Source: Flavobacteriaceae bacterium (GTDB lineage: Bacteria > Bacteroidota > Bacteroidia > Flavobacteriales > Flavobacteriaceae). From it: a stretch of 35,142 nt of DNA. How positions within the stretch are numbered: the first letter of the stretch is position 1; each line of letters starts with the position of its first letter. The notes beneath the pieces were generated by a model that saw only the letters and a list, made by a program, of their open reading frames with translations, searched no databases and was not told where the DNA came from. Where the stretch lies: contig JALWKK010000096.1 in assembly GCA_027081505.1 (NCBI GenBank), forward strand, positions 1 through 35,142. The letters are read 5' to 3'. Positions 2,360-23,751 of the stretch are shown here, one piece after another. A program made the position numbers and the translations under genes.

Positions 2360-2548
2360 GTGGAAATAAGTTTTAACACAAAAGAAGAAAATAATAACAG
2401 AAGAAAAACAGAATTTTTGAGCCTTCCTCAAGAAGAACGATTTTTGAGATTTCTGGTATTATGCGAGCAAGTAGTATCATTATTTCCGGCAAAAAAGGCA
2501 AAAAAAAATAATTTTGTTATAGATTTATGCACGAATGAATTGGAATGA
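2360..2548 (+). CDS. Small hypothetical protein, partner of the downstream nucleotidyltransferase-fold gene
   Basis: This 62-residue, charged, soluble protein has no signal peptide or membrane segment. The start is a GTG; the frame opens after a stop at about 2337 and contains no ATG before it. The middle (residues 18-45) looks amphipathic and helical. Its last 14 bases overlap the start of the next gene, so translation of the two is probably coupled. I do not recognise a named domain. From memory, small proteins of this shape precede similar nucleotidyltransferase-fold genes in other Bacteroidota. That would fit an antitoxin or partner role, but this is inference only. Confidence 0.6.
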   Translation: MEISFNTKEENNNRRKTEFLSLPQEERFLRFLVLCEQVVSLFPAKKAKKNNFVIDLCTNELE

Positions 2549-3002
2549 AAAAATAACCGAATTTATTAAGTTAGCAAACAAACATCAAGTAAAAATGCTA
2601 TTAGTAGGAGGAGGAGCTGTTAATTTTTACGGATACCAAAGGCACAGTGCAGATGTAGATTTTTGGATTGAAACAACAGATGAAAACTTAAATAAATTGG
2701 TTGCAGTTATTAAAGAAATGGGATATGATATTGATGAATTTCCGAAGGAGGTAAAACAACAGTTGCAAAATATTTCTATAAAATTTTCACCTTTAGACTT
2801 GGATTTAGAATTAATAACCCGTTTCTCGGTTAACAAAACTTTTAAACAAGCCTACAATGATAGTAAAAAGGTTACCGTAAAAAGTAAAAATTTAGAATGG
2901 CGAGTTATATCATACGAAGATTTAATTACCAGCAAAATAAAAGCAAACAGACCTAAAGATTTATTAGATATACAACAATTAAAAACATTAAAGAACAATT
3001 AA
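2535..3002 (+). CDS. Nucleotidyltransferase-fold protein (MNT/AbiEii/DUF6036-like)
   Basis: The 155-residue cytoplasmic protein carries the minimal nucleotidyltransferase signature: a glycine-rich turn G25-G26-G27 followed by Asp40-Val-Asp42 in a strand (SADVDFWI), and a later acidic strand (DLDLELIT, about residues 92-99). The C-terminal part (ISYEDLITSKIKANRPKDLLD) matches the helix-rich end common in AbiEii- and MNT-like proteins, where a Lys and an Asp follow the core. Such proteins are often toxins or antitoxins of type IV or type VII pairs that modify tRNA or a partner protein, but some have other roles. It overlaps the upstream small gene by 14 bases. The pair is wedged between a peptidase and a peptide transporter, with 15 bases before the next gene, so it may have been inserted into an older peptide-use cluster. 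Confidence 0.75.
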   Translation: MNWNEKITEFIKLANKHQVKMLLVGGGAVNFYGYQRHSADVDFWIETTDENLNKLVAVIKEMGYDIDEFPKEVKQQLQNISIKFSPLDLDLELITRFSVNKTFKQAYNDSKKVTVKSKNLEWRVISYEDLITSKIKANRPKDLLDIQQLKTLKNN

Positions 3003-7092: not shown

Positions 7093-9117
7093 TTACTCTA
7101 AAATGAAAGCTCCCTTTGTGCCTGTATAGTGAAAGGGGAGCTTTCTTCTTTTACACGTTTTTTTCCACCTCTCAATATAACTCCTGTAATTACTTCCGTC
7201 TGCAATTATTTGTCGGGGTTGCAAACTATCTATTAATCTATCCAAATGTATCTTCGGGCTGTGTGTTAGTACCACATAATCTATCTTATGGTTGGGATAT
7301 AATCCTAAACTATCTAAAACCAAAATCATCTTCTTATTATATGTAAAAACAAACGGAAGTTTTTCAATGGTACGTTTAGCAATTCGGTTGGCAATATAAT
7401 AATCTTTAACAGGTGGCTGTTGTAAATAATTAATGGTAGTATCATTTGTTAAAACGCGCAGATTGCTACCGTTTTTGTATGCCATAACAGATGTACGTGT
7501 CTTATGAAAGATGATAAACTCATTATAATGAGTTGCTTGTTTTTCAAAAAAGGCGAATACTAAAAAAACAACCACAGAAGACAATGCAAGAATACTGTTT
7601 TTCGCATTTCTGTTTTTCCATACTAATACAAAAGATACAATTACCAAGTACGAAGCGAAAACTTTATAACCGGAAAAAGAAATATTGGATACTATAAACC
7701 CATCTTGCTTACTTGCCCATAAAACAAAGGTGTTTAACCATTCAATAACATAATTAAATGCAACCGAAAGCCAAACCGGCAATGCATTTATTAATGCCAA
7801 AACTATTGTAAAAATACCCAAAGACAGTATAATACCTAAGAAGGGTAATATTACAATATTTGTTAAAAAGGATAAACCCGAAAATTGATGAAAATAATAC
7901 AACAGTAGGGGTGTAACACCTATTTGAACAACAAAAGTTATGGTTAAAATTCCCCAAAATAATTTGTCTAGATAAAATCTGGGTCTGTAATATTTATACA
8001 GTTTGGGGTGCATCCATAAAATAAAAAACACGGCAACATAACTTAACTGAAAACCAACTTGAAACAACCACAAAGGGTTTAGCAACAATAAAAAGAAATA
8101 CGATAAAAACAGGGTGTTAATAGCATTGGTTTCTCTATTTATGAGTTGCGCAAGCACTAAAAAAGAAAACATAGTAACCGCTCTAACTACCGAAACCGAC
8201 AAACCGGCTATTAGAGCAAAACCCCACAATAAAACAACGGTTAAAAGTAGAGCGGATGTTTTACCGCCCTTTAGATAGTGCAAGGGTTTTAGTAAAAAAG
8301 AAATCAATAACAAAACAATACCAACGTGCAATCCAGAGACTGCCAAAATATGTGTTGCTCCGGCTTTTTGATATCCTTCATACAGTGCTTTACTAATGTC
8401 TTTTCGTTCTCCTAAGAGTAACGCTTCAATAATTGCCAATTCATCTTTAGTGAGGTTGTTTTCTTTTAACTTTAGGATGATGTGATTTCGTAAGGAAGCA
8501 GCAATTCCTAGAAGTGTTTTTTTACCTTTTCGTTGTTCTAAAACATCCAGACCCGAAATGCGCACCTGATTATTTATCCCCAATGTTTTTAGATACTTTG
8601 AGTAATCAAATGTATATGGATTTCTATTCGAAAATACTTCCGAAAATTTTGCGCTTATTAACAACTCATCATCAACATAAAAAGGCTGAAAAAGTGAATC
8701 TTTTTTTACCGAAACCAAGATAGTTCCGGTAGAAAGATTACCATCAACGGCAATAACCTTTGCTATAAAGTTTTGTGTATATACATTGGGTTTTAAAACG
8801 CTTTTTACCTTACATTGCACAAGTTGAAAACTGTCCTTTTTAATAAAATTTTGCGCATTACCGGGCTGAAAATCGGGTAGCCGGAAGGTTACATTTACAT
8901 AACCAAGCAAGAAAAAAGTACCAAATGCAACTACGGTAAAAATTTTATTTGGCTGAACGTTCTTTAGATTAAGAAACCAAAGTAAAACCAATACCAACAA
9001 ACCCGCCGACACTAATTTGAAAAAAAACACAGGGTCGGAAGGAAAAAAATAACCCGCAACTATCCCTCCTGTTAAAAACAAGGAAAGCTTAACAACAGCA
9101 AAGTTTACAAACCGCAT
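7093..9117 (-). CDS. comEC: ComEC/Rec2-family DNA uptake channel
   Basis: The protein is 674 residues. An N-terminal membrane hairpin is followed by a soluble OB-like region (about residues 90-190), then the competence domain with many membrane segments and the signature AGATHILAVSGLHVGIV. The C-terminal metallo-beta-lactamase-like part is short and degenerate: around VVLTHSPKIHLDRL the usual HxHxDH zinc motif is missing, as is common in Bacteroidota ComEC. In transformable bacteria ComEC moves single-stranded DNA through the inner membrane. No other competence genes are nearby. It starts at ATG and is convergent with the thioredoxin gene, with 33 bases between the two stops. Confidence 0.93.
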   Translation of the reverse strand: MRFVNFAVVKLSLFLTGGIVAGYFFPSDPVFFFKLVSAGLLVLVLLWFLNLKNVQPNKIFTVVAFGTFFLLGYVNVTFRLPDFQPGNAQNFIKKDSFQLVQCKVKSVLKPNVYTQNFIAKVIAVDGNLSTGTILVSVKKDSLFQPFYVDDELLISAKFSEVFSNRNPYTFDYSKYLKTLGINNQVRISGLDVLEQRKGKKTLLGIAASLRNHIILKLKENNLTKDELAIIEALLLGERKDISKALYEGYQKAGATHILAVSGLHVGIVLLLISFLLKPLHYLKGGKTSALLLTVVLLWGFALIAGLSVSVVRAVTMFSFLVLAQLINRETNAINTLFLSYFFLLLLNPLWLFQVGFQLSYVAVFFILWMHPKLYKYYRPRFYLDKLFWGILTITFVVQIGVTPLLLYYFHQFSGLSFLTNIVILPFLGIILSLGIFTIVLALINALPVWLSVAFNYVIEWLNTFVLWASKQDGFIVSNISFSGYKVFASYLVIVSFVLVWKNRNAKNSILALSSVVVFLVFAFFEKQATHYNEFIIFHKTRTSVMAYKNGSNLRVLTNDTTINYLQQPPVKDYYIANRIAKRTIEKLPFVFTYNKKMILVLDSLGLYPNHKIDYVVLTHSPKIHLDRLIDSLQPRQIIADGSNYRSYIERWKKTCKRRKLPFHYTGTKGAFILE
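7105..7153 (+). terminator. Hairpin terminator for the thioredoxin gene, inside the comEC 3' end
   Basis: The arms 7105-7117 (GAAAGCTCCCTTT) and 7132-7145 (AAAGGGGAGCTTTC) pair over 13 bases with one bulged base and a 14-base loop, followed on the plus strand by TTCTTTT. It lies about 45 bases after the thioredoxin stop and falls within the last codons of the convergent comEC gene. The stem is much stronger than chance for this AT-rich DNA. Confidence 0.65.
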
Positions 9118-9158: not shown

Positions 9159-9389
9159 CTAAAATTCAAAATCAAGAAGTTGAGATAAAGATACCTCAAG
9201 TGTATTTGCTAGATTGTAAAGTGTACTTAAAGTAGTGTTTATCTCTCCACGCTCGATTCTACCAATTTGAGAAATCGGTATATTGGCATCATAAGCTAAC
9301 TGTTCTTGTGATAAATTTCTCTCCTTTCTAAGTTTCCTAAGATGTTTTCCAAACGCCTTTATACAACTTATGTTCTTATTATTTATCAC
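9159..9389 (-). CDS. Small XRE-family helix-turn-helix regulator
   Basis: The 76-residue protein consists almost wholly of a Cro/CI-type helix-turn-helix domain (about residues 13-68: KHLRKLRKERNLSQEQLA, then IPISQIGRIERGE, then LYNLANTLEVSLSQLL). The start is a GTG. There is no sensor or dimerisation domain beyond this, so it is probably a compact repressor, possibly acting on its own promoter. A perfect 16-bp palindrome lies 35 bases upstream of its start, and a shorter inverted repeat (ATAGTA/TACTAT) immediately upstream. It sits between comEC and a divergent secreted protease gene. Its target genes are not known; the protease is the nearest candidate. Confidence 0.88.
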   Translation of the reverse strand: MINNKNISCIKAFGKHLRKLRKERNLSQEQLAYDANIPISQIGRIERGEINTTLSTLYNLANTLEVSLSQLLDFEF

Positions 9390-17637: not shown

Positions 17638-18744
17638 GTGAAAACTCGATCTACATCCTTAAGTAAAATTGCACTCCAAAAATTCAAAAAAAGTTTTTGG
17701 GGTGTTTTCAGTTTTGTATTTTTAGTTATCTGCACACTAATAGCAATTTTTGCTTATGCATTGGCACCGGATAACTCTCAAAACGCCAACCAACAACACC
17801 TCTCAATACACTCCAAACCTCCGGGATTTAAAGTAGTTATGTTAACCCTTCCCGGAAAAGAAATAAAACAAAACAAGCTACAAGCATTTTTCTTCGGAAA
17901 AAAAACCACTGCTTCAGAAATTCCCATTTCAGGTTACCAACTCACTAAAACCGGTATTCTTATTACGCATTACACTCCTAACGGAAGTTCGGGAGTACAA
18001 AAAGAGTACCCGCTTTCCAAATTCCCAAAAGCAAAAACGGTTAAAGACATCAAAAAAAAATACCTAACCCAAAAAACCTTTTTACTAGGAACCGATAAAT
18101 ACGGGCGAGACCTCTTAAGCAGGATGTTAGTAGGCATTCGTATTTCGCTATCTATTGGATTTATTGCTGTGTTAATATCGTTACTAATAGGTATTACACT
18201 GGGAGCCATTGCCGGCTATTTTGGAGGCTTGGCAGACACTATTATTATGTGGCTTATTAATGTAACCTGGTCTATACCCACTTTGCTGTTAGTTATTGCT
18301 ATTACCTTAGCATTAGGCAAAGGGTTTTGGCAAGTGTTTATTGCTGTAGGACTTACTATGTGGGTAGAAGTGGCAAGGGTCGTTAGAGGACAAGTTTTAA
18401 GTATAAAAAAAATGCAATACGTTACCGCAGCTCGCACGTTGGGGTTTTCTAATTGGCGCATTATCACCAAACATATATTACCCAATAGTATGGCTCCCGT
18501 AATTATTATTTCGGCAGCTAATTTTGCCGCTGCCATATTAATTGAAAGCGGATTAAGCTTTTTGGGTATTGGCGCACAACCGCCTATGCCCAGTTGGGGT
18601 GGTATTATAAAAGACCATTACAGTTACATTATTTTAGGCAAACCCTATCTGGCAATTATTCCCGGATTGGCAATTATGAGTTTGGTAACCGCTTTTATGC
18701 TTATTGGCAATGCACTTAGAGATGCGTTGGATGTGAAGGGATAA
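17638..18744 (+). CDS. Oligopeptide-type ABC transporter permease (DppC/OppC family)
   Basis: The protein is 368 residues from a GTG start; no ATG occurs before the first membrane helix (about residues 22-44). A long soluble region (about residues 50-145) precedes a TDKYGRDLLSRMLVG motif and the five-helix permease domain. The EAA loop that contacts the ATPase is seen as AARTLGFSNWRIITKHILPN. The end LGIGAQPPMPSWG matches DppC/OppC proteins. The usual partners (OppA, OppB, OppD, OppF) are not adjacent, so it is an orphan subunit here and must work with partners encoded elsewhere. Substrate is probably peptides, fitting the POT and DPP IV genes in the same window. Confidence 0.88.
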   Translation: MKTRSTSLSKIALQKFKKSFWGVFSFVFLVICTLIAIFAYALAPDNSQNANQQHLSIHSKPPGFKVVMLTLPGKEIKQNKLQAFFFGKKTTASEIPISGYQLTKTGILITHYTPNGSSGVQKEYPLSKFPKAKTVKDIKKKYLTQKTFLLGTDKYGRDLLSRMLVGIRISLSIGFIAVLISLLIGITLGAIAGYFGGLADTIIMWLINVTWSIPTLLLVIAITLALGKGFWQVFIAVGLTMWVEVARVVRGQVLSIKKMQYVTAARTLGFSNWRIITKHILPNSMAPVIIISAANFAAAILIESGLSFLGIGAQPPMPSWGGIIKDHYSYIILGKPYLAIIPGLAIMSLVTAFMLIGNALRDALDVKG

Positions 18745-18797
18745 AAAATTGTACCCGACACAAACCAAGTAAAACCGCAACAAACCTGTACTGAGTA

Positions 18798-18863
18798 TTT
18801 CGACTTTGCTCAATATAACACTTACCGAAGTAAAGGTTCCAACCCTTCGACTACGCTCAGGGA
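18798..18863. repeat. Two copies of a TTCGACT-nnnn-GCTCAG intergenic repeat
   Basis: TTTCGACTTTGCTCA (18798-18812) and CCCTTCGACTACGCTCAGGGA (21 bases ending at 18863, core TTCGACTACGCTCAG) share the core TTCGACTnnGCTCA. The second has CCCT/AGGG complementary ends. Sequences of this kind are frequent intergenic palindromic repeats in Flavobacteriaceae (knowledge from memory). They follow the 3' end of the ABC permease gene. Confidence 0.6.
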
Positions 18864-18887
18864 TGGTTTTGGAACTTATAGGTAAAT

Positions 18888-18930
18888 AAAGGGTTTGTAA
18901 AAGGTTATAGAATTTGCAAACCCTTTTAGT
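18888..18930 (+). terminator. Hairpin, possible terminator after the ABC permease
   Basis: AAAGGGTTTG (18888-18897) and CAAACCCTTT (18917-18926) pair perfectly over ten bases with a 19-base loop, then TTAGTTTC. It is 144 bases past the permease stop, so if it is the terminator the transcript has a long 3' tail. Confidence 0.5.
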
Positions 18931-19038
18931 TTCATTAATTAGGATTTTTAAGCTGAAATAATTTAAGAGTTAAAAACCAAAATAGTTTTCTGTGTTTAGC
19001 GAAAATATTTTCAACTATTTTTGACATTATTGCTTGTA

Positions 19039-19069
19039 ATACCTATTCTTAATATAAAATAGTCCAAAA
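19039..19069 (-). repeat. Short interspersed repeat, member A
   Basis: The 31 bases match 27238-27268 in inverted orientation with one mismatch. It ends at the point where the open RHS reading frame begins (frame open from 19063). The sequence resembles the 3' half of the 78-base repeats at 24075 and 27142 (shared GGACTATTTT and ATA...AAC.GGTAT). Confidence 0.8.
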
Positions 19070-20145
19070 AGATTTGGTATAAAAAGTATTATAATCCAGA
19101 GTTAATAAAAACAAAACAATATGCAGGAGCTTTTGTTTATGAAGATAATTCGTTAAATTTGTTTATGCACGCAGAAGGTTTTGTTAAAAAGACAGTAACA
19201 GGAGAATTTAAATATGTGTTCCAACATAAGGATCACTTAGGGAATATACGCATGAATTATACGGATATCAACGGCAACGGGAGTATTTCTGCTTCAGAAA
19301 TTTTGGAAGAACATAACTACTATGCCTTTGGAGGAAAGCACTTAGGATACAATAATGTTGTTATTGATATGTATGATCGAAAATTTAACGGTGTAGAGCA
19401 AGAAAAAACATTTGGTATAAATTTGTATGAAATGGATTTCAGACAATATGATGTCGCAATTGGCAGATTTATAGCCATAGACCCTGTAACCCATTTTTCT
19501 ATGAGTACTTATACCGCTTTTGATAATAATCCTGTTTTTTGGTCTGACCCTAGTGGGGCAGATGGTGATGATTATGATTATGAATTGGATAGAGATTTTG
19601 ATAGAGATAATGAGCCTGATCGAAGAGGAGATTTTATAGGAGATACAGAATGGGACGACAATGGAGATGCATTTGTATGGAATGGAGATAGTTGGGACAG
19701 GGTGGAAAATGAAATAGTAGTAGATTTAGGTATTGTAGGAAGTAATAACGATGAAAGAAATGATTTTCTTGGAGAAAGAGATGATATTGATCAAGATGCA
19801 CAGGATTACCCGGAATTAACAAATAATTATAATAGAGATATAGGTTTTAAGCCAGACTATGATATTACTATCGACGGAGTAAGCTATTCAAATAAAGGAG
19901 CCTATACACTTTGTGCTGGAGAAAAAATAAGAATACCCATAGATGGGGTTAATGTTAATGGGACAGTGCATAAGGTCACCAATGGTTATGAAAGTGTTAT
20001 TATTGATGAAACTGGAAGAGTAGGTGTAGATGGTTATTCTGTCATTGATCGTCTTATTTACGTTTTGATTGGTGGCGAAATAGAACGAGATGATATAAAT
20101 GATGATGATGATGGTTGGGACGCATTATTTAATTGGAAAGAATGA
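19063..20145 (+). pseudogene. 5'-truncated RHS/polymorphic toxin end (core end plus variable tip)
   Basis: The open frame runs from a stop at 19060-19062 to a TGA at 20143-20145. RHS-like sequence starts at about 19105 (IKTKQYAGAFVYEDNS), ahead of any good start codon; the first usable codon, a TTG at 19159, lies within it. The core end is clear: KDHLGNIRMNY, YYAFGG, RQYDVAIGRFIAIDP and the closing motif DPSGA (19546-19560). The 194 residues after DPSGA are a very acidic variable tip, the position where RHS proteins carry a toxin; I do not recognise its activity. The N-terminal wall and nearly all YD repeats are missing, so this cannot make a normal RHS protein. It may be a silent tip cassette or plain debris. 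The next gene overlaps its stop. Confidence 0.85.
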
Positions 20146-20480
20146 TTAAGATTAGTAAAAATAAATTATTCGATAGTTTAATATTCGTATTAGTAATATT
20201 ATTCAGTATACCCTATATCTATATAATATTAGCTATAAGTAATGTTGGAAGACATAATGTTTTTAAAAACGATCCTTCATTTTATTATGATGATATATTT
20301 AAGTTTATTTACGCATTACCTGTATATGGTTTTATTGTCGTTTTAATTGAACTTCTTCTTATCCTTTCTAAAGGGAATGTTTCAAAATTTAAAATATTTG
20401 TATTTATTAGTTTAATTATATTTTTTTTTCTATTATACTATTTCGACCCAGGAGGTTATTTATTTTGGTTTTTCGATTAA
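20142..20480 (+). CDS. Membrane protein, candidate immunity protein to the RHS tip
   Basis: With the ATG at 20142 the protein is 112 residues; this ATG overlaps the RHS stop as ATGA, so it is favoured over a TTG nine bases upstream. It has three hydrophobic segments (about residues 10-32, 55-77 and 85-108). Genes directly overlapping RHS toxin ends are nearly always cognate immunity genes, and a membrane protein would protect against a toxin acting at the inner membrane. No family is recognised, so the immunity role rests on position alone. Confidence 0.7.
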   Translation: MIKISKNKLFDSLIFVLVILFSIPYIYIILAISNVGRHNVFKNDPSFYYDDIFKFIYALPVYGFIVVLIELLLILSKGNVSKFKIFVFISLIIFFFLLYYFDPGGYLFWFFD

Positions 20481-20492
20481 ACTGATATTATT

Positions 20493-21020
20493 ATGAAATT
20501 TATCCATTTTTATTTTTTTATTATTGTTTCTGCGAATGCTTATTCACAAAATAATAATTACGACTATTTAATTAACAAGTCGATTGAATACATTGAGCTC
20601 GAAAATTTTAATAAAGGTAGAGATTTCGCACAAAAAGCTTATAAAATTAATCCAGAAAGAGGAGAGGCATATTATTGTTTAGCAGTAATTAAACTTTCTG
20701 AATGCAAAAATGACAATAAAAATTCCTGTATTGAAGGATTATTTTTTGTTGAAAAGTTAGATACTTATTTAAATAATTATAGAAATTCACATTTTGTAAG
20801 AGGGTCATTACAGGCAAAAATCAAAGACTATGAAGGTTCGCTAATTAGTTTTAATAAAGCGATTGAACTTAAACCTAAAAGCGGCTATTATTATTACAAC
20901 AGAGGATATGTTTTATTTAAATTAGGAAAAGAAAAATTATTTTGTAATGACTTAAGAATTAGTTGCGACCTTGGATATTCTAGGTCTTGCAAATTGTATT
21001 TAAAAAATTGCGGCAATTAA
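20493..21020 (+). CDS. Secreted tetratricopeptide-repeat protein
   Basis: The protein is 175 residues with a signal peptide (residues 1-19, ending AYSQ). Two or three TPR units are visible: one near residues 33-63 (ENFNKGRDFAQKAYKINPERGEAYY) and one near 107-140 (KDYEGSLISFNKAIELKPKSG, then YYYNRGYVLFKLGK). The C-terminal 30 residues hold five cysteines (CNDLRISCDLGYSRSCKLY and a final CG), suggesting disulfides in the periplasm. It lies 12 bases after the immunity candidate and directly ahead of an orphan tip fragment in the same frame. TPR proteins commonly bind other proteins; an immunity or adaptor role within the RHS locus is possible. Confidence 0.75.
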   Translation: MKFIHFYFFIIVSANAYSQNNNYDYLINKSIEYIELENFNKGRDFAQKAYKINPERGEAYYCLAVIKLSECKNDNKNSCIEGLFFVEKLDTYLNNYRNSHFVRGSLQAKIKDYEGSLISFNKAIELKPKSGYYYYNRGYVLFKLGKEKLFCNDLRISCDLGYSRSCKLYLKNCGN

Positions 21021-21167
21021 AAAAAACTTAGCAAAAATTCATTTAATCCTTCAGCTTTTCATAGTGTAAAGAAAGGGGTATTAGCTTTTTCAAAATCTCG
21101 AAATTTCTCTCATATTGTAGGGAATAACCCAAGTAATACATGGATTTTATATGATTTTTATAAATAA
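21021..21167 (+). pseudogene. Orphan toxin-tip-like fragment
   Basis: Directly after the TPR stop, the same frame stays open for 48 codons to a TAA at 21165-21167, and reads as protein-like sequence (SFNPSAFHSVKKGVLAFSKS, then HIVGNNPSNTWILYDFYK). There is no start codon. The next gene starts one base after its stop, the layout seen between RHS tips and immunity genes. It is therefore read as the left-over last 45 or so residues of a displaced toxin tip. The sequence is basic, unlike the acidic tip at 19561-20142, so the two would be different toxins. Confidence 0.5.
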
Positions 21168-21168
21168 A

Positions 21169-21522
21169 ATGAAAAAAGAATATTTTTGGATAGCGTTTTT
21201 AATTTTTGTTATTGTCTATATTATAGTTGCTCAGAATTTTGGTTCTAAGAGAACAATCAGACGTTTTGAATATTTTTATACAACAAATATCAGTGGTGTT
21301 TTGGAGTATGCCAGAGCAGGCTCTTATGGTAGCGTATTCAAGGTTCAAGGGATTGAAAATGAATTTGTATTTTACCCAAATACGGGAAAATTAAATAGGA
21401 AAAAAATATTTTACCATATTGCTAAAAAAGGCGATTTAATATATAAACCTGCATATTCGGATACTTTAAAATTAATTAAAAATGGTAAAATTTACTTATA
21501 TACATTTAAGAAGTTTGATTAG
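21169..21522 (+). CDS. Membrane-anchored immunity-like protein
   Basis: Starting at the ATG at 21169 the protein is 117 residues: one N-terminal membrane anchor (about residues 5-24) and a soluble beta-rich domain (TTNISGVLEYARAGSYGSVF, then EFVFYPN and GDLIYKPAYSDTLKLIKNGK). An upstream ATG at 21151 would add six residues. It follows the orphan tip fragment by one base and is followed by an overlapping truncated lipoprotein gene. From memory, similar small anchored proteins recur in flavobacterial RHS loci, but I cannot name the family. Role as immunity protein is inferred from position. Confidence 0.65.
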   Translation: MKKEYFWIAFLIFVIVYIIVAQNFGSKRTIRRFEYFYTTNISGVLEYARAGSYGSVFKVQGIENEFVFYPNTGKLNRKKIFYHIAKKGDLIYKPAYSDTLKLIKNGKIYLYTFKKFD

Positions 21523-21691
21523 GTGTTTTTTTACAATTCTGGTTGTTGTTTTATTTATTAACTGCTCTAACGACAATAATTATGAACAAACAAAAATAAT
21601 GGCAGATAAATTATTACTTGATATTTCTTTAGGAAAAGCTAACAGTCATTTCCCAAAAAAATATTTCCCCCGCTGTCAAGCGATTGTATAG
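21515..21691 (+). pseudogene. Truncated lipoprotein, cut by the integrase remnant
   Basis: A frame from a TTG at 21515 (overlapping the previous stop by eight bases) encodes a lipoprotein signal (VVVLFINC) and then KIMADKLLLDISLGKANSHF and PKKYFP. After about 21667 the plus strand reads as recombinase sequence in another frame, and the lipoprotein frame ends within 24 bases at 21691. This looks like a breakpoint that removed the rest of the lipoprotein gene. The intact protein would probably have been another immunity-like or surface lipoprotein of the RHS locus. Confidence 0.55.
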
Positions 21692-21905
21692 TCACATCTT
21701 TAAAAAACTAAAGAAAATAAACAACAACGTAGAAAATATAAAGCAGATTAGAGCATCAGTAATAACATATTGGTTAGGACAATACAACTTACGAAAAGTA
21801 CAATATTTAGCAGGACATCGTTACATCAGTTAAACGGAAAGATACTTACAAGACGATTTAGAAAACCTGCACCAAATCGTAAATAATTTTCATCCAATCT
21901 CATAA
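21672..21905 (+). pseudogene. Tyrosine recombinase (integrase) C-terminal remnant with premature stop
   Basis: In the frame starting near 21672 the sequence reads VKRLYSHIFKKLKK, then KQIRASVITYWLGQYNLRKV, then QYLAGHRYIS, a stop (TAA at 21831-21833), then TERYLQDDLENLHQI and an end at 21905. This is the catalytic end of a Bacteroidota tyrosine recombinase: the Arg of QIRAS, the His of AGHRYIS and the Tyr of TERY (21843-21845). Relatives read AGHRYISSTERY, so the stop probably arose from a Ser codon by a single C to A change. It lies four codons ahead of the nucleophile. The N-terminal three quarters of the gene are missing, so the element that brought it is dead here. Confidence 0.88.
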
Positions 21906-21929
21906 ACTAAAAATATGGAACAAAAATTG

Positions 21930-21937
21930 TATATTTG
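21930..21937 (+). promoter_or_regulatory. -7 promoter element of the toxin-antitoxin pair
   Basis: TATATTTG is an exact match to the Bacteroidota -7 consensus TAnnTTTG. It lies 22 bases before the ATG at 21960 and inside the longer frame that could start at 21915, so it both marks a promoter and argues for the shorter antitoxin. A clear -33 TTG is not seen at the usual distance. Confidence 0.65.
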
Positions 21938-21959
21938 CTATACTAAAAACGTAGAAATT

Positions 21960-22196
21960 ATGGCAACAATAGATTTAAGAAAAACAGTCAAACAGTATAT
22001 AAATACAGCAGATATACGTCTTTTAAAAATGATAAAAGCATTAGCAGAAAGTTATCAAAATGACGAGCAAGAACTTACGTTAACTAAAGAGCAATACGAA
22101 CTTATTGACAAGCGTAGAGAAGCTCATTTAAAAGGTGAAAGTAAATCGTTTACTTGGGAACAAGTTAAACAGAACGCAAGAAACGCTGCTCAATAA
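21960..22196 (+). CDS. Antitoxin of a ParE-type toxin-antitoxin pair
   Basis: The 78-residue protein starts at the ATG at 21960. The N-terminal helical part (IDLRKTVKQYINTADIRLLK, about residues 4-35) is followed by the tail LIDKRREAHLKGESKSFTWE, which is typical of the addiction-module (unstable antitoxin) family in Bacteroidota, where it wraps the toxin. The stop overlaps the toxin start by one base (TAATG), so the pair is translationally coupled with antitoxin first. Such antitoxins usually repress their own promoter together with the toxin. Confidence 0.88.
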   Translation: MATIDLRKTVKQYINTADIRLLKMIKALAESYQNDEQELTLTKEQYELIDKRREAHLKGESKSFTWEQVKQNARNAAQ

Positions 22197-22486
22197 TGAC
22201 TTATATTTTAGAAGTTAAAGACGAAGCTAATTTAGAAATCATAGAAGCTTATCTTTATTACGAAGAAAAACGCATAGGATTAGGCGAAGAATTTTTAGAA
22301 CATTTAGATACTTATTTTGACAGAATTACAACTTATCCAAAACATTTTCCACAAAATAGAAAACCATATCGAGAAGCATTTATAAAACGTTTTCCATTTT
22401 TGATTATTTACGAAATAGCAAAGGGAAAAGTAATTGTATATTCTGTTTTTAATACTTGGCAAAATCCAGAAAAGAAGAAGAAATAA
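22196..22486 (+). CDS. ParE/RelE-superfamily toxin
   Basis: The 96-residue protein has the RelE/ParE fold pattern: an opening strand (YILEVKDEANLEIIEAYLYY), two helices (residues about 10-50), a segment YPKHFPQNRKPYREAFIKRF, and the closing strands PFLIIYEIAKGKVIVYSVFN. The long helices and the PYREAFIKRFPFLIIYEI block suit ParE-like toxins that act on DNA gyrase rather than ribosome-dependent RelE enzymes, but the target cannot be fixed from sequence. It appears intact. It follows a dead integrase remnant, so it may be a survivor of the element that carried it. Confidence 0.88.
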   Translation: MTYILEVKDEANLEIIEAYLYYEEKRIGLGEEFLEHLDTYFDRITTYPKHFPQNRKPYREAFIKRFPFLIIYEIAKGKVIVYSVFNTWQNPEKKKK

Positions 22487-22920
22487 AAATCCCCACAAAA
22501 CAAAATCCAATTTTATCATACTTCAAAAATCTTTGTATTTTGTTTTGTTCCGCTCGCCACCACTTCTGTAGTTTTTAAGTCATATTTTTTGAAAGCCAAC
22601 GCAAATACAGCACATTACTTTTTTATAGAAAATTAGTTGATTATTAGAAACTGGAAACTATAAAAAAGCAAAGAGCTGTGCCAACGCTCAAAAACAAAAA
22701 ATCCGCCATAAAACCTACCCAAAGCAAAGTGTATTAGCCCCCAAAAAAGTCGGACAAGATTCTATTTAAATATTTAGTATAATTTTGTCCTATATAAAAA
22801 CAAAAAGAACGTTTAGATATTTATAAAAAAAGATACAAAATAAATTGTTATTTTGATCTAAAGACAACCAAGGATGGTTCATCCGTAAATTTATATATCC
22901 CTTAATTAATAGAAGAGTAA
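22487..22920. other. Gene-free stretch after the toxin-antitoxin pair
   Basis: No coding frame is supported. A perfect 12-base inverted repeat (ACAAAACAAAAT at 22495-22506, ATTTTGTTTTGT at 22537-22548; 30-base loop) just after the toxin could be a weak terminator. A second short inverted repeat (GGACAA 22752-22757, TTGTCC 22785-22790) overlaps TAATTTTG (22780-22787), an exact match to the -7 consensus, 134 bases ahead of the nuclease gene. The rest shows nothing recognisable. Confidence 0.55.
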
Positions 22921-23751
22921 ATGAACTATAAAAAAACATACACCCTCCTACTTGTTATCACCGTTATCGGTTTGTATTTTTTAGAAAAATACATAGCCAA
23001 AAACAACATAAAATTTCCAACCGAAAACAATAAAAAATACCAAGCAAATACTCCTAAAAGTTCAGGCGAATTTAACGATACTTTTTTGCCAAAATCTACT
23101 ACCGGAGCAATTGTAAAACATAATTTTTATACGCTTTCTTACAGCGAACCCAACGAGCAAGCAGAATGGGTTGCTTATACATTACAAAAAAATCATCTTT
23201 CTAAAAACGAATTAGATCGTCCTTATTTTGAAATAGACAAAAAAGTAAAAACCCGCTCAGCAGACTGGCGTAATTATAAAAACTCTGGATACGACAGAGG
23301 ACACCTTTGTCCTGCCGGCGATAGAAGGTTTGATTACAACGCCTTTAAAGAAACTTTTTTAACCAGTAATATCAGTCCGCAAAATCATGAATTTAATGCA
23401 GGTATCTGGAATCGGTTAGAACAAAAAACAAGATATTGGGCTGCCAAATACAATGGTGTTTATGTAATAACCGGAGGCGTTTTAAAACCCAACCTTCAAA
23501 CTATTGGATATGAAAAAGTTTCGGTACCAAACTATTTCTACAAAATTATAGCAGACAACACCAACGGAAAGATAAAAACCATTGCCTTCCTTATCCCTAA
23601 CAAACCCCTAAGCAATTCGTTTTACGATTATGTTGTATCCATCGACGAAATAGAAAAACAAACCGGAATCGATTTTTTTTACCAGTTGCCCGATACTGTC
23701 GAAAATAAAATAGAAAGCTCCGTTAGCATAGAAGCGTGGGGGAAGAATTAG
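22921..23751 (+). CDS. DNA/RNA non-specific endonuclease, membrane-anchored
   Basis: The protein is 276 residues with an N-terminal hydrophobic segment (about residues 7-24) that acts as a signal anchor, so the nuclease domain faces the periplasm. The beta-beta-alpha-metal motif is Asp125-Arg126-Gly127-His128 (DRGHLCPAGD), followed by Asn150 in TSNISPQ, Asn159 in FNAGIWNRLE and Glu167. These match the general base, the metal-binding Asn and the catalytic Glu of Serratia-type nuclease. The family degrades both DNA and RNA; roles include nutrition and defence against incoming DNA. It starts at an ATG. No inhibitor gene is adjacent. Confidence 0.94.
   Translation: MNYKKTYTLLLVITVIGLYFLEKYIAKNNIKFPTENNKKYQANTPKSSGEFNDTFLPKSTTGAIVKHNFYTLSYSEPNEQAEWVAYTLQKNHLSKNELDRPYFEIDKKVKTRSADWRNYKNSGYDRGHLCPAGDRRFDYNAFKETFLTSNISPQNHEFNAGIWNRLEQKTRYWAAKYNGVYVITGGVLKPNLQTIGYEKVSVPNYFYKIIADNTNGKIKTIAFLIPNKPLSNSFYDYVVSIDEIEKQTGIDFFYQLPDTVENKIESSVSIEAWGKN

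What the first reader, a model, noticed from the sequence alone, without database searches (positions are those of the whole stretch)
21660..21905. Dead integrase tail with a stop four codons before its catalytic tyrosine
The catalytic end of a Bacteroidota tyrosine recombinase is readable at 21672-21905, including Arg, His and Tyr. A TAA at 21831 replaces what relatives have as Ser, explained by one C to A change. The rest of the gene is gone. It fixes the nature of this island as a former mobile element and shows it can no longer use this integrase to leave.
Basis: partly seen in the sequence, partly recalled or inferred. Interest (0 to 1): 0.6.

Follow-up and report, generated by a model that had tools for sequence, protein, structure and literature searches.

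The report
Fossil of a toxin-tip-swapping mobile element
The broken integrase tail is the remnant of a mobile element, found whole in many bacteria of the same family, that appears to insert itself at one fixed point inside a bacterial weapon gene (rhs) and so swaps the weapon's toxic tip for a new one.

Summary
Confirmed: a tyrosine-recombinase C-terminus is readable at 21692-21905 with an in-frame TAA at 21831; the other three quarters of the gene were not found in this incomplete MAG. It lies in a 4.2-kb insertion that the two nearest congeners lack. The useful result is what the intact gene belongs to. Relatives 80-89% identical are the second of two recombinases (IntB) in a four-gene block, HTH / ATPase / IntA / IntB. 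As a rule the block sits behind an rhs toxin tip, and an orphan rhs fragment follows it. In 26 of the 31 copies with such a fragment it starts at the same rhs codons (N-Y-Y-P-F-G). One MAG holds two copies, identical at 7,836 of 7,837 bases, in two different rhs genes, with flanks diverging at this site. So this is a site-specific element that integrates into the rhs core, in frame, and displaces the old tip. IntA keeps all six catalytic positions; IntB nearly always lacks the first arginine. The window holds a wreck of such an element; its right end is lost at an IS fragment.

The parts
18745..22920 (.). insertion between an ABC-transporter permease gene (17638-18741) and a DNA/RNA non-specific endonuclease gene (22921-23751)
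   Evidence: absent in congeners G301 and G303, which have 25 and 29 bp there
19036..19083 (.). dispersed ~45-bp repeat at the point where the rhs gene is cut off
   Evidence: many near-identical copies in G000, G303 and G301
19093..20142 (+). 3' end of an rhs gene: end of the core plus variable C-terminal tip
   Evidence: TIGR03696 Rhs_assc_core 49 bits; core profile 14-173 of 179, E 1e-49; 44% to a full-length rhs
19315..19331 (+). att-like site: rhs codons N-Y-Y-x-F-G (here A instead of P), where relatives of the element integrate
   Evidence: aligns with positions 70-88 of the right-end model, that is by the rhs half only, E 7; place defined in relatives
20133..20477 (+). small membrane protein next to the tip, candidate immunity protein
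   Evidence: position only; no family match
20493..21017 (+). TPR protein, cargo or immunity
   Evidence: Pfam TPR
21151..21519 (+). small protein with a hydrophobic N-terminus, cargo or immunity
   Evidence: ORF; no confident family
21515..21691 (+). short lipoprotein-like ORF abutting the integrase remnant; may be truncated
   Evidence: frame; homology to the element starts right after it
21692..21905 (+). IntB remnant: last ~70 codons and stop of the second tyrosine recombinase
   Evidence: 89.5% DNA identity to L101; profile 219-271 and 273-294 of 294
21831..21833 (+). in-frame TAA four codons before the catalytic Tyr codon
21915..22193 (+). antitoxin-like gene (addiction module component)
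   Evidence: PF09720 E 2e-5; TIGR02574 E 1e-7, just under its cut-off; 97% protein identity to L101
22196..22483 (+). ParE-type toxin gene
   Evidence: PF05016 E 1e-5; 97% protein identity to L101
22487..22730 (+). non-coding right-hand part of the element, up to the break
   Evidence: 76% to L101 5158-5374; alignment runs to 22730 and stops
22730..22830 (+). left end of an insertion sequence; stands where the element's right end should follow
   Evidence: 93% to other copies in G000, followed in L178 by a transposase-like reading frame (by eye)

Best explanation
The tail is what is left of intB, last gene of the recombination block of an integrative element of about 7-8 kb that lives in rhs genes of Flavobacteriaceae. 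Element order: 3' part of the rhs core from codons N-Y-Y-P-F-G on, new toxin tip, immunity gene, HTH regulator (opposite strand), MCM-like ATPase, IntA, IntB, cargo (in the loci looked at, for instance a toxin-antitoxin pair or an ORF6N protein), conserved right end ...AAAAAAACGCATA, then AACTAYTATCCN. IntA with IntB recombines the circle's att site with the same codons of a resident rhs gene; the exchange falls within the 5 bp TTYGG (Phe-Gly codons). Reading stays in frame, so the resident Rhs shaft gets the incoming tip, and the old tip with its immunity gene is pushed downstream as an orphan. Repeats give arrays. In the window such an element has decayed: rhs cut at a small repeat, the middle deleted from HTH to IntB codon ~220, the right end lost at an IS, a stop in the rest. 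Shown: anatomy, fixed site, two-copy case, decay. Inferred: circle, catalytic roles of IntA and IntB, ATPase function, toxicity of the tips, immunity function of their neighbours.
For: Order HTH(-) > ATPase > IntA > IntB in 58 of 61 copies with enough upstream DNA (two of the other three only have a gene hit in two pieces); an rhs core or core fragment upstream in 38 of 42; of 39 copies with >=4.5 kb downstream, 31 have an rhs hit within 4.5 kb and 26 of those 31 begin at core-profile position 87-90 of 179. Right-end/att sequences line up. In tandem arrays outer-left and inner site differ at positions up to 12 of AAYTAYTAYCCNTTYGG and inner and outer-right site from position 18 on (L053, L054, L116; L096: up to 9 and from 19), which confines the exchange to positions 13-17. 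AG_MB154 has two copies, 7,836/7,837 identical, in two rhs genes; left flanks 217 of 723 bases equal without gaps. Tips: 98 sequences fall in 61 families. The window tail sits in a 7-row set (SH-aLRT 95) of the IntB tree, beside L101, which has the right end and an rhs fragment; window 21692-22730 runs along L101 through TA pair and cargo. Sister species G303 and genome G050 hold like wrecks: rhs, IntB tail, TA-like pair.
Against: No empty/occupied strain pair was found: a search with an orphan tip met one other genome of that genus, without a match, and a second tip had only 35-43% matches in 3 of 397 genomes. No circle was seen. In the window the att right end is absent (best model hit there E 1.3, elsewhere). 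The loci are the best 80 of 342 confirmed stretches and several are tandem copies, so counts are not independent; the right-end model was built from the sequences it then found. Ten of the 39 testable copies have no right-end hit; 8 of 39 have no rhs hit within 4.5 kb (one of them, L140, has one 6.4 kb on), 3 are followed by a complete core, 1 starts at 65 and 1 at 110. One right end (L142) joins rhs at other codons. The two rhs genes of AG_MB154 are related upstream (531 bp at 93%), identity runs 11 bp left and ~20 bp right of the sites, and the L097 right flank is only ~33 bp long.
Confidence: 0.82

Rival explanations
1. The tips are displaced by ordinary homologous recombination between rhs cores (the model of Jackson 2009); the recombinase block is a passenger that happened to insert beside rhs.
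For: rhs cores are conserved and RecA could join them; tandem copies may be homologous duplications; the two rhs genes of AG_MB154 share 531 bp at 93% further upstream; Jackson 2009 argues for displacement by homologous recombination (passages).
Against: Junctions fall at one point (26 of 31) with a conserved non-rhs right end abutting it. Homologous exchange would give scattered breakpoints; Jackson reports core fragments of variable length in enterobacteria. In the two-copy MAG identity stops 11 bp left of the site.
Confidence: 0.1
2. The tail belonged to an ordinary genomic-island or prophage integrase that brought the 4.2-kb insertion into the permease-endonuclease gap.
For: The insertion is absent in sister species and carries a TA pair.
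Against: The nearest intact relatives are IntB of the rhs block; homology to L101 continues through the TA pair; none of the 20 direct-repeat families found joins the two edges and ARAGORN finds no tRNA in the window.
Confidence: 0.05
3. The IntB 3' end is kept on purpose, for instance as leader or promoter of the TA pair, which is why only this part survives here and in G303 and G050.
For: Same remainder in three places beside the TA pair or a similar pair; 9 bp separate the IntB stop and the first antitoxin ATG.
Against: Ascertainment: the query was this tail. With the ATPase as query, partial remnants turn up too (G069, G211, G142, G122, G051). The tail's ratio of silent to replacing changes against L101 (15:8) is not different from that of the TA genes (19:7; Fisher p 0.76), and the G050 toxin frame is itself broken.
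Confidence: 0.12
4. The stop is a sequencing or assembly error in a MAG.
For: Single MAG, no reads available.
Against: Irrelevant to the conclusion: the gene lacks its first ~220 codons, and similar tails with stops occur in G050, G143 and G303.
Confidence: 0.05

Closest known systems
Rhs C-terminal displacement (Jackson et al. 2009, PMC2935791; passages seen)
   Same: new tip joined to the resident rhs core, old tip left downstream as an orphan; a circular intermediate is proposed
   Different: [quoted passage not shown] here a recombinase block sits between tips and the junction is fixed
Orphan cdiA-CT/cdiI arrays with intervening integrase and transposase genes (PLoS Genet 2016, PMC4927057; passages seen)
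   Same: arrays of toxin/immunity modules with recombination genes between them; transposition and site-specific recombination suggested
   Different: CDI; no att site or element boundary in the passages seen
rAID systems of Bacteroidales (PMC12247911; passages seen)
   Same: tyrosine recombinase beside immunity genes, Bacteroidota
   Different: arrays of orphan immunity genes behind a predicted recombinase, with intergenic motifs; not described there as sitting inside rhs
Elements with tandem or trio tyrosine recombinases: Tn554, RIT (PMC3414803; passages seen)
   Same: two or three adjacent recombinase genes
   Different: here two recombinases plus an MCM-like ATPase; target is rhs
Gamma-mobile-trio (GMT) islands (recalled, no paper seen)
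   Same: recombinase-based module that carries toxins in some cases and phage defence in others
   Different: IntA reaches only 48 bits against the GmtY model's cut-off of 340

Membership tests
Tyrosine recombinases (PF00589) | C-terminal catalytic residues R-II, H, Y | tested here: met
   all three codons are in the window tail, with a stop before Y
Tyrosine recombinases (PF00589) | R-I and H-II of the catalytic set | tested here: not met
   the R-I region is missing in the window; in intact IntB R-I is R in 1 of 64 and H-II is H in 11 of 64; in IntA both 66 of 66
IntB of the rhs-tip element | sequence clade of IntB | tested here: met
   quick tree of 67 rows, window tail (26% of columns) in a 7-row set, SH-aLRT 95, nearest L101 at 89% over 76 columns
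rhs-tip integrative element, complete | HTH, ATPase, IntA, IntB block | tested here: not met
   only the IntB tail in the insertion; no ATPase match and no close IntA match in the MAG
rhs-tip integrative element, complete | rhs core with att codons and tip on the left | tested here: met
   window 19093-20142, site 19315-19331
rhs-tip integrative element, complete | right end and orphan rhs fragment | tested here: not met
   no right-end match in the insertion; homology stops at 22730 at an IS end
Integron | IntI with its own model score | tested here: not met
   IntA 92 bits against TIGR02249 cut-off 265; IntB 21 bits
RIT element | three tyrosine recombinases in a row | tested here: not met
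   IntA and IntB match PF00589; the third protein matches no Pfam or NCBIfam model
GMT island | GmtY above cut-off | tested here: not met
   48 bits against 340
rAID | recombinase with co-oriented orphan immunity genes and intergenic motifs | not tested
   definition from passages of PMC12247911; no rAID model was run
Site-specific mobile element in general | excised circle / empty site | tested here: inconclusive
   no reads, so no circle test; two tip searches found no with/without pair; two near-identical copies with different flanks

The most novel reading that the evidence does not exclude
Flavobacteriaceae carry a dedicated, self-mobilising warhead exchanger: a recombinase pair plus MCM-like ATPase that integrates, excises and stacks toxin-tip/immunity cassettes at one codon-precise site in rhs genes, in frame, so that a cell can gain a new weapon while keeping immunity to the old one, and can switch back by excision. 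A sister branch of the same block moves phage-defence systems instead.
Probability: 0.55. Interest if true: 0.8.

Novelty: new variant of a known kind. Interest (0 to 1): 0.66.

Why it matters
[quoted passage not shown] Here a recombinase block is tied to rhs tips, with element ends and an exchange point mapped to 5 bp. That makes tip displacement testable in a simple two-plasmid assay, gives a marker for finding orphan tip and immunity genes, and lets small remnants like the window's be read as records of past weapon swaps.

Tried and rejected
Composite-transposon reading of the identical integrase copies 7-8 kb apart: rejected, they are tandem copies of one element. Selective retention of the IntB tail: not supported. 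Empty-site search by orphan tips: nothing usable. att right end in the window: not found. ATPase by sequence: no Pfam, NCBIfam or PDB match, weak PHROG matches only; the predicted model (mean pLDDT 68.8) matches MCM helicases at E 3e-6 but with TM-scores of only 0.26-0.35, so 'MCM-like' is weak. The Ser codon look-up used a search pattern that admits only Ser codons, so it proves nothing; the protein alignment is the evidence. One search was a script whose parsing failed; one search replaced it. The Bryopsis chloroplast rhs paper (passages) gave no link to this element.

Rows dropped before counts: from the right-end model five rhs-fragment starts of 45 were taken out by hand (L089 4506, L091 4652, L118 3314, L140 16336, L143 4323) and one (L090) was shifted by 3 bp, leaving 40 rows, 39 distinct. 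For the tips, frames under 90 aa were dropped, then two of 100 with under 60 aa beyond the core; these include at least six genomes fetched twice, as G handles and as named records. IntA/IntB residue counts use distinct sequences covering more than 250 profile positions (66 distinct of 82 and 64 distinct of 78). The downstream and order counts use L084-L150 only.

Full report
Observation. The window is contig C96 of a 2.12-Mb, 78.8%-complete MAG in 112 contigs. The frame at 21663-21902 encodes the C-terminus of a tyrosine recombinase with one stop, TAA at 21831, in the place of a Ser that ten of ten aligned intact relatives have, four codons before the Tyr. In the family search 46 of 299 genomes matched at E <= 1e-5, G000 included; the seven best non-self rows are 80-85% identical, and many of the others (28-45%) are probably ordinary Xer-like recombinases (that label is my inference). 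DNA homology to the closest relative, L101 (a Lutibacter MAG), starts at 21692.

Surroundings. In congeners G301 and G303 the permease stop and the endonuclease start are 25 and 29 bp apart; in the window 4,176 bp lie between. Three other relatives with both genes in one stretch (L067, L068, L078) also have them side by side; a fourth (L072, another genus) has about 10 kb of other genes between them; in the remaining 12 of the 18 fetched loci no endonuclease hit was found in the stretch. The insert holds: a dispersed 45-bp repeat; the 3' end of an rhs gene with a tip; small membrane, TPR and lipoprotein-like ORFs; the IntB tail; an antitoxin/ParE pair; and the end of an IS. With one full-length rhs as query it is the only match in this MAG at E <= 1e-5.

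What the intact gene belongs to. In the first loci taken, identical integrase copies lay 7-8 kb apart and rhs fragments lay beside them. A profile search of genome contigs then gave 67 loci (best 80 of 342 confirmed stretches), nearly all Flavobacteriaceae by record title (exceptions include Saccharicrinis, Oleispira and an unplaced Flavobacteriales MAG). In them HTH(-), ATPase, IntA and IntB occur in this order in 58 of 61 copies that have enough upstream DNA. An rhs core or core fragment lies upstream in 38 of 42. Of 39 copies with at least 4.5 kb downstream, 31 have an rhs hit within 4.5 kb; 26 of these start at profile position 87-90, 3 at position 1 (a complete core), 1 at 65, 1 at 110; 8 have none, though L140 has one further on, again at position 89. 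The ATPase is present in 22 of 299 family genomes, remnants included.

The site. Upstream of the orphan fragment stands a conserved right end, typically AAAAAAACGCATA, followed by AACTAYTATCCNTTTGG. On the left the same rhs codons follow Glu-Glu-(Asn/Ser/other) codons of the host gene in most of the loci. In tandem arrays the outer-left and inner sites differ at positions 9 and 12 (L053), 3, 6 and 12 (L054), 12 (L116) and 6 and 9 (L096); inner and outer-right sites differ from position 18 (L096: 19) on; so the exchange lies within TTYGG, positions 13-17. L106 and L114 show differences on one side only. Successive right ends in one locus lie mostly 6.7-8.1 kb apart. In MAG AG_MB154, two copies sit in two different rhs genes of one 3.69-Mb contig: 7,836 of 7,837 bases equal, left flanks 217 of 723 equal without gaps, right flanks different although only ~33 bp is left on one of them. 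Further upstream the two rhs genes share 531 bp at 93%.

Proteins. IntA has all six catalytic positions in 66 of 66 distinct sequences. IntB has R-I in 1 of 64 and H-II in 11 of 64, but R-II, H and Y in 64 of 64. So the tail in the window comes from a conserved but degenerate partner, and IntA is the likelier catalyst (inference). The ATPase carries a P-loop (by eye) and has only a weak structural match to MCM helicases; a distant version (L058) is joined to DnaG-type primase domains. Tips are very diverse: 98 in 61 families; several families hold both tips of full-length rhs and orphans, from different species.

What happened in the window. Window 21692-22730 follows L101 from IntB through the TA pair into the right-hand part. 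The homology stops at 22730, where the IS end begins. On the left the rhs match begins just behind the 45-bp repeat. HTH, ATPase, IntA and about 220 codons of IntB are gone from the insertion. The remainder has few replacing changes (8 of 23 differences from L101, stop included; 14 of 36 between two intact relatives), so it probably died recently. A sister species, G303, shows a comparable wreck inside an rhs array, with right end and orphan rhs fragment still present and a TA-like pair read by eye, and G050 another.

Known and new. C-terminal displacement of rhs is known; Jackson 2009 (passages) proposes homologous recombination with circles. Orphan tips have been noted in Ornithobacterium (passages). 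CDI arrays with integrases between modules have been noted (passages). In the library searched I found no account of an element with att sites in rhs (the lists are capped and most subscription journals are not held). I file the element as a new variant of site-specific mobile elements and the window as its decayed member.

Limits. No circle, no with/without strain pair, no experiment. Counts are not independent (tandem copies, related elements), and the right-end model was made from the sequences it describes, though the rhs start position is a separate measure.

Noticed in passing
L140, L145, L146, L148 (each ~6-18 kb): The same HTH/ATPase/IntA/IntB block without an rhs core upstream carries phage-defence genes downstream (PADLOC): HamB (L140), QatA/C/D (L145), GajA/B with a type IIG enzyme (L146), CBASS cyclase, E1-E2 and JAB (L148). 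These four IntB form one clade (SH-aLRT 100). L140 still has an orphan rhs fragment behind the defence gene.
   Followed up: partly
L142 5105: A right end of this kind joins rhs at other conserved codons (about T-Y-T-Y-D-A), upstream of the usual place: perhaps a branch with a second target in rhs.
   Followed up: no
L097 and L098: One MAG with two almost identical element copies in two rhs genes: best place to study recent movement.
   Followed up: yes
L176 / L152 (G303:C239): Sister-species rhs array with an IntB tail, TA-like pair, right end and orphan rhs fragment.
   Followed up: partly
L056, L057, L150 (Flavivirga aquatica): Many copies of the element family in one genome, some with stops: 11 tail matches.
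   Followed up: no
window 19036-19083: Short dispersed repeat with complementary ends, many copies in G000 and G303, at the break of the rhs gene.
   Followed up: partly
window 22730-22830: IS end, 93% identical to copies elsewhere in the MAG, two of them at contig ends.
   Followed up: partly
window 9174-9356, minus strand: Partial match to the element's HTH profile (2-62 of 109, E 5e-12), 10 kb from the insertion; probably an unrelated XRE-type regulator.
   Followed up: no
L089 4506, L140 16336: A second kind of right end (AAAAAAGACGG...) at the same rhs codons, suggesting another subfamily of the element.
   Followed up: no
L111: Contig binned as Oleispira (Gammaproteobacteria) carries the flavobacterial element: probably mis-binned.
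   Followed up: no
window 2535-3002: Small ORF that looks like a nucleotidyltransferase, next to two transporter genes; by eye only.
   Followed up: no
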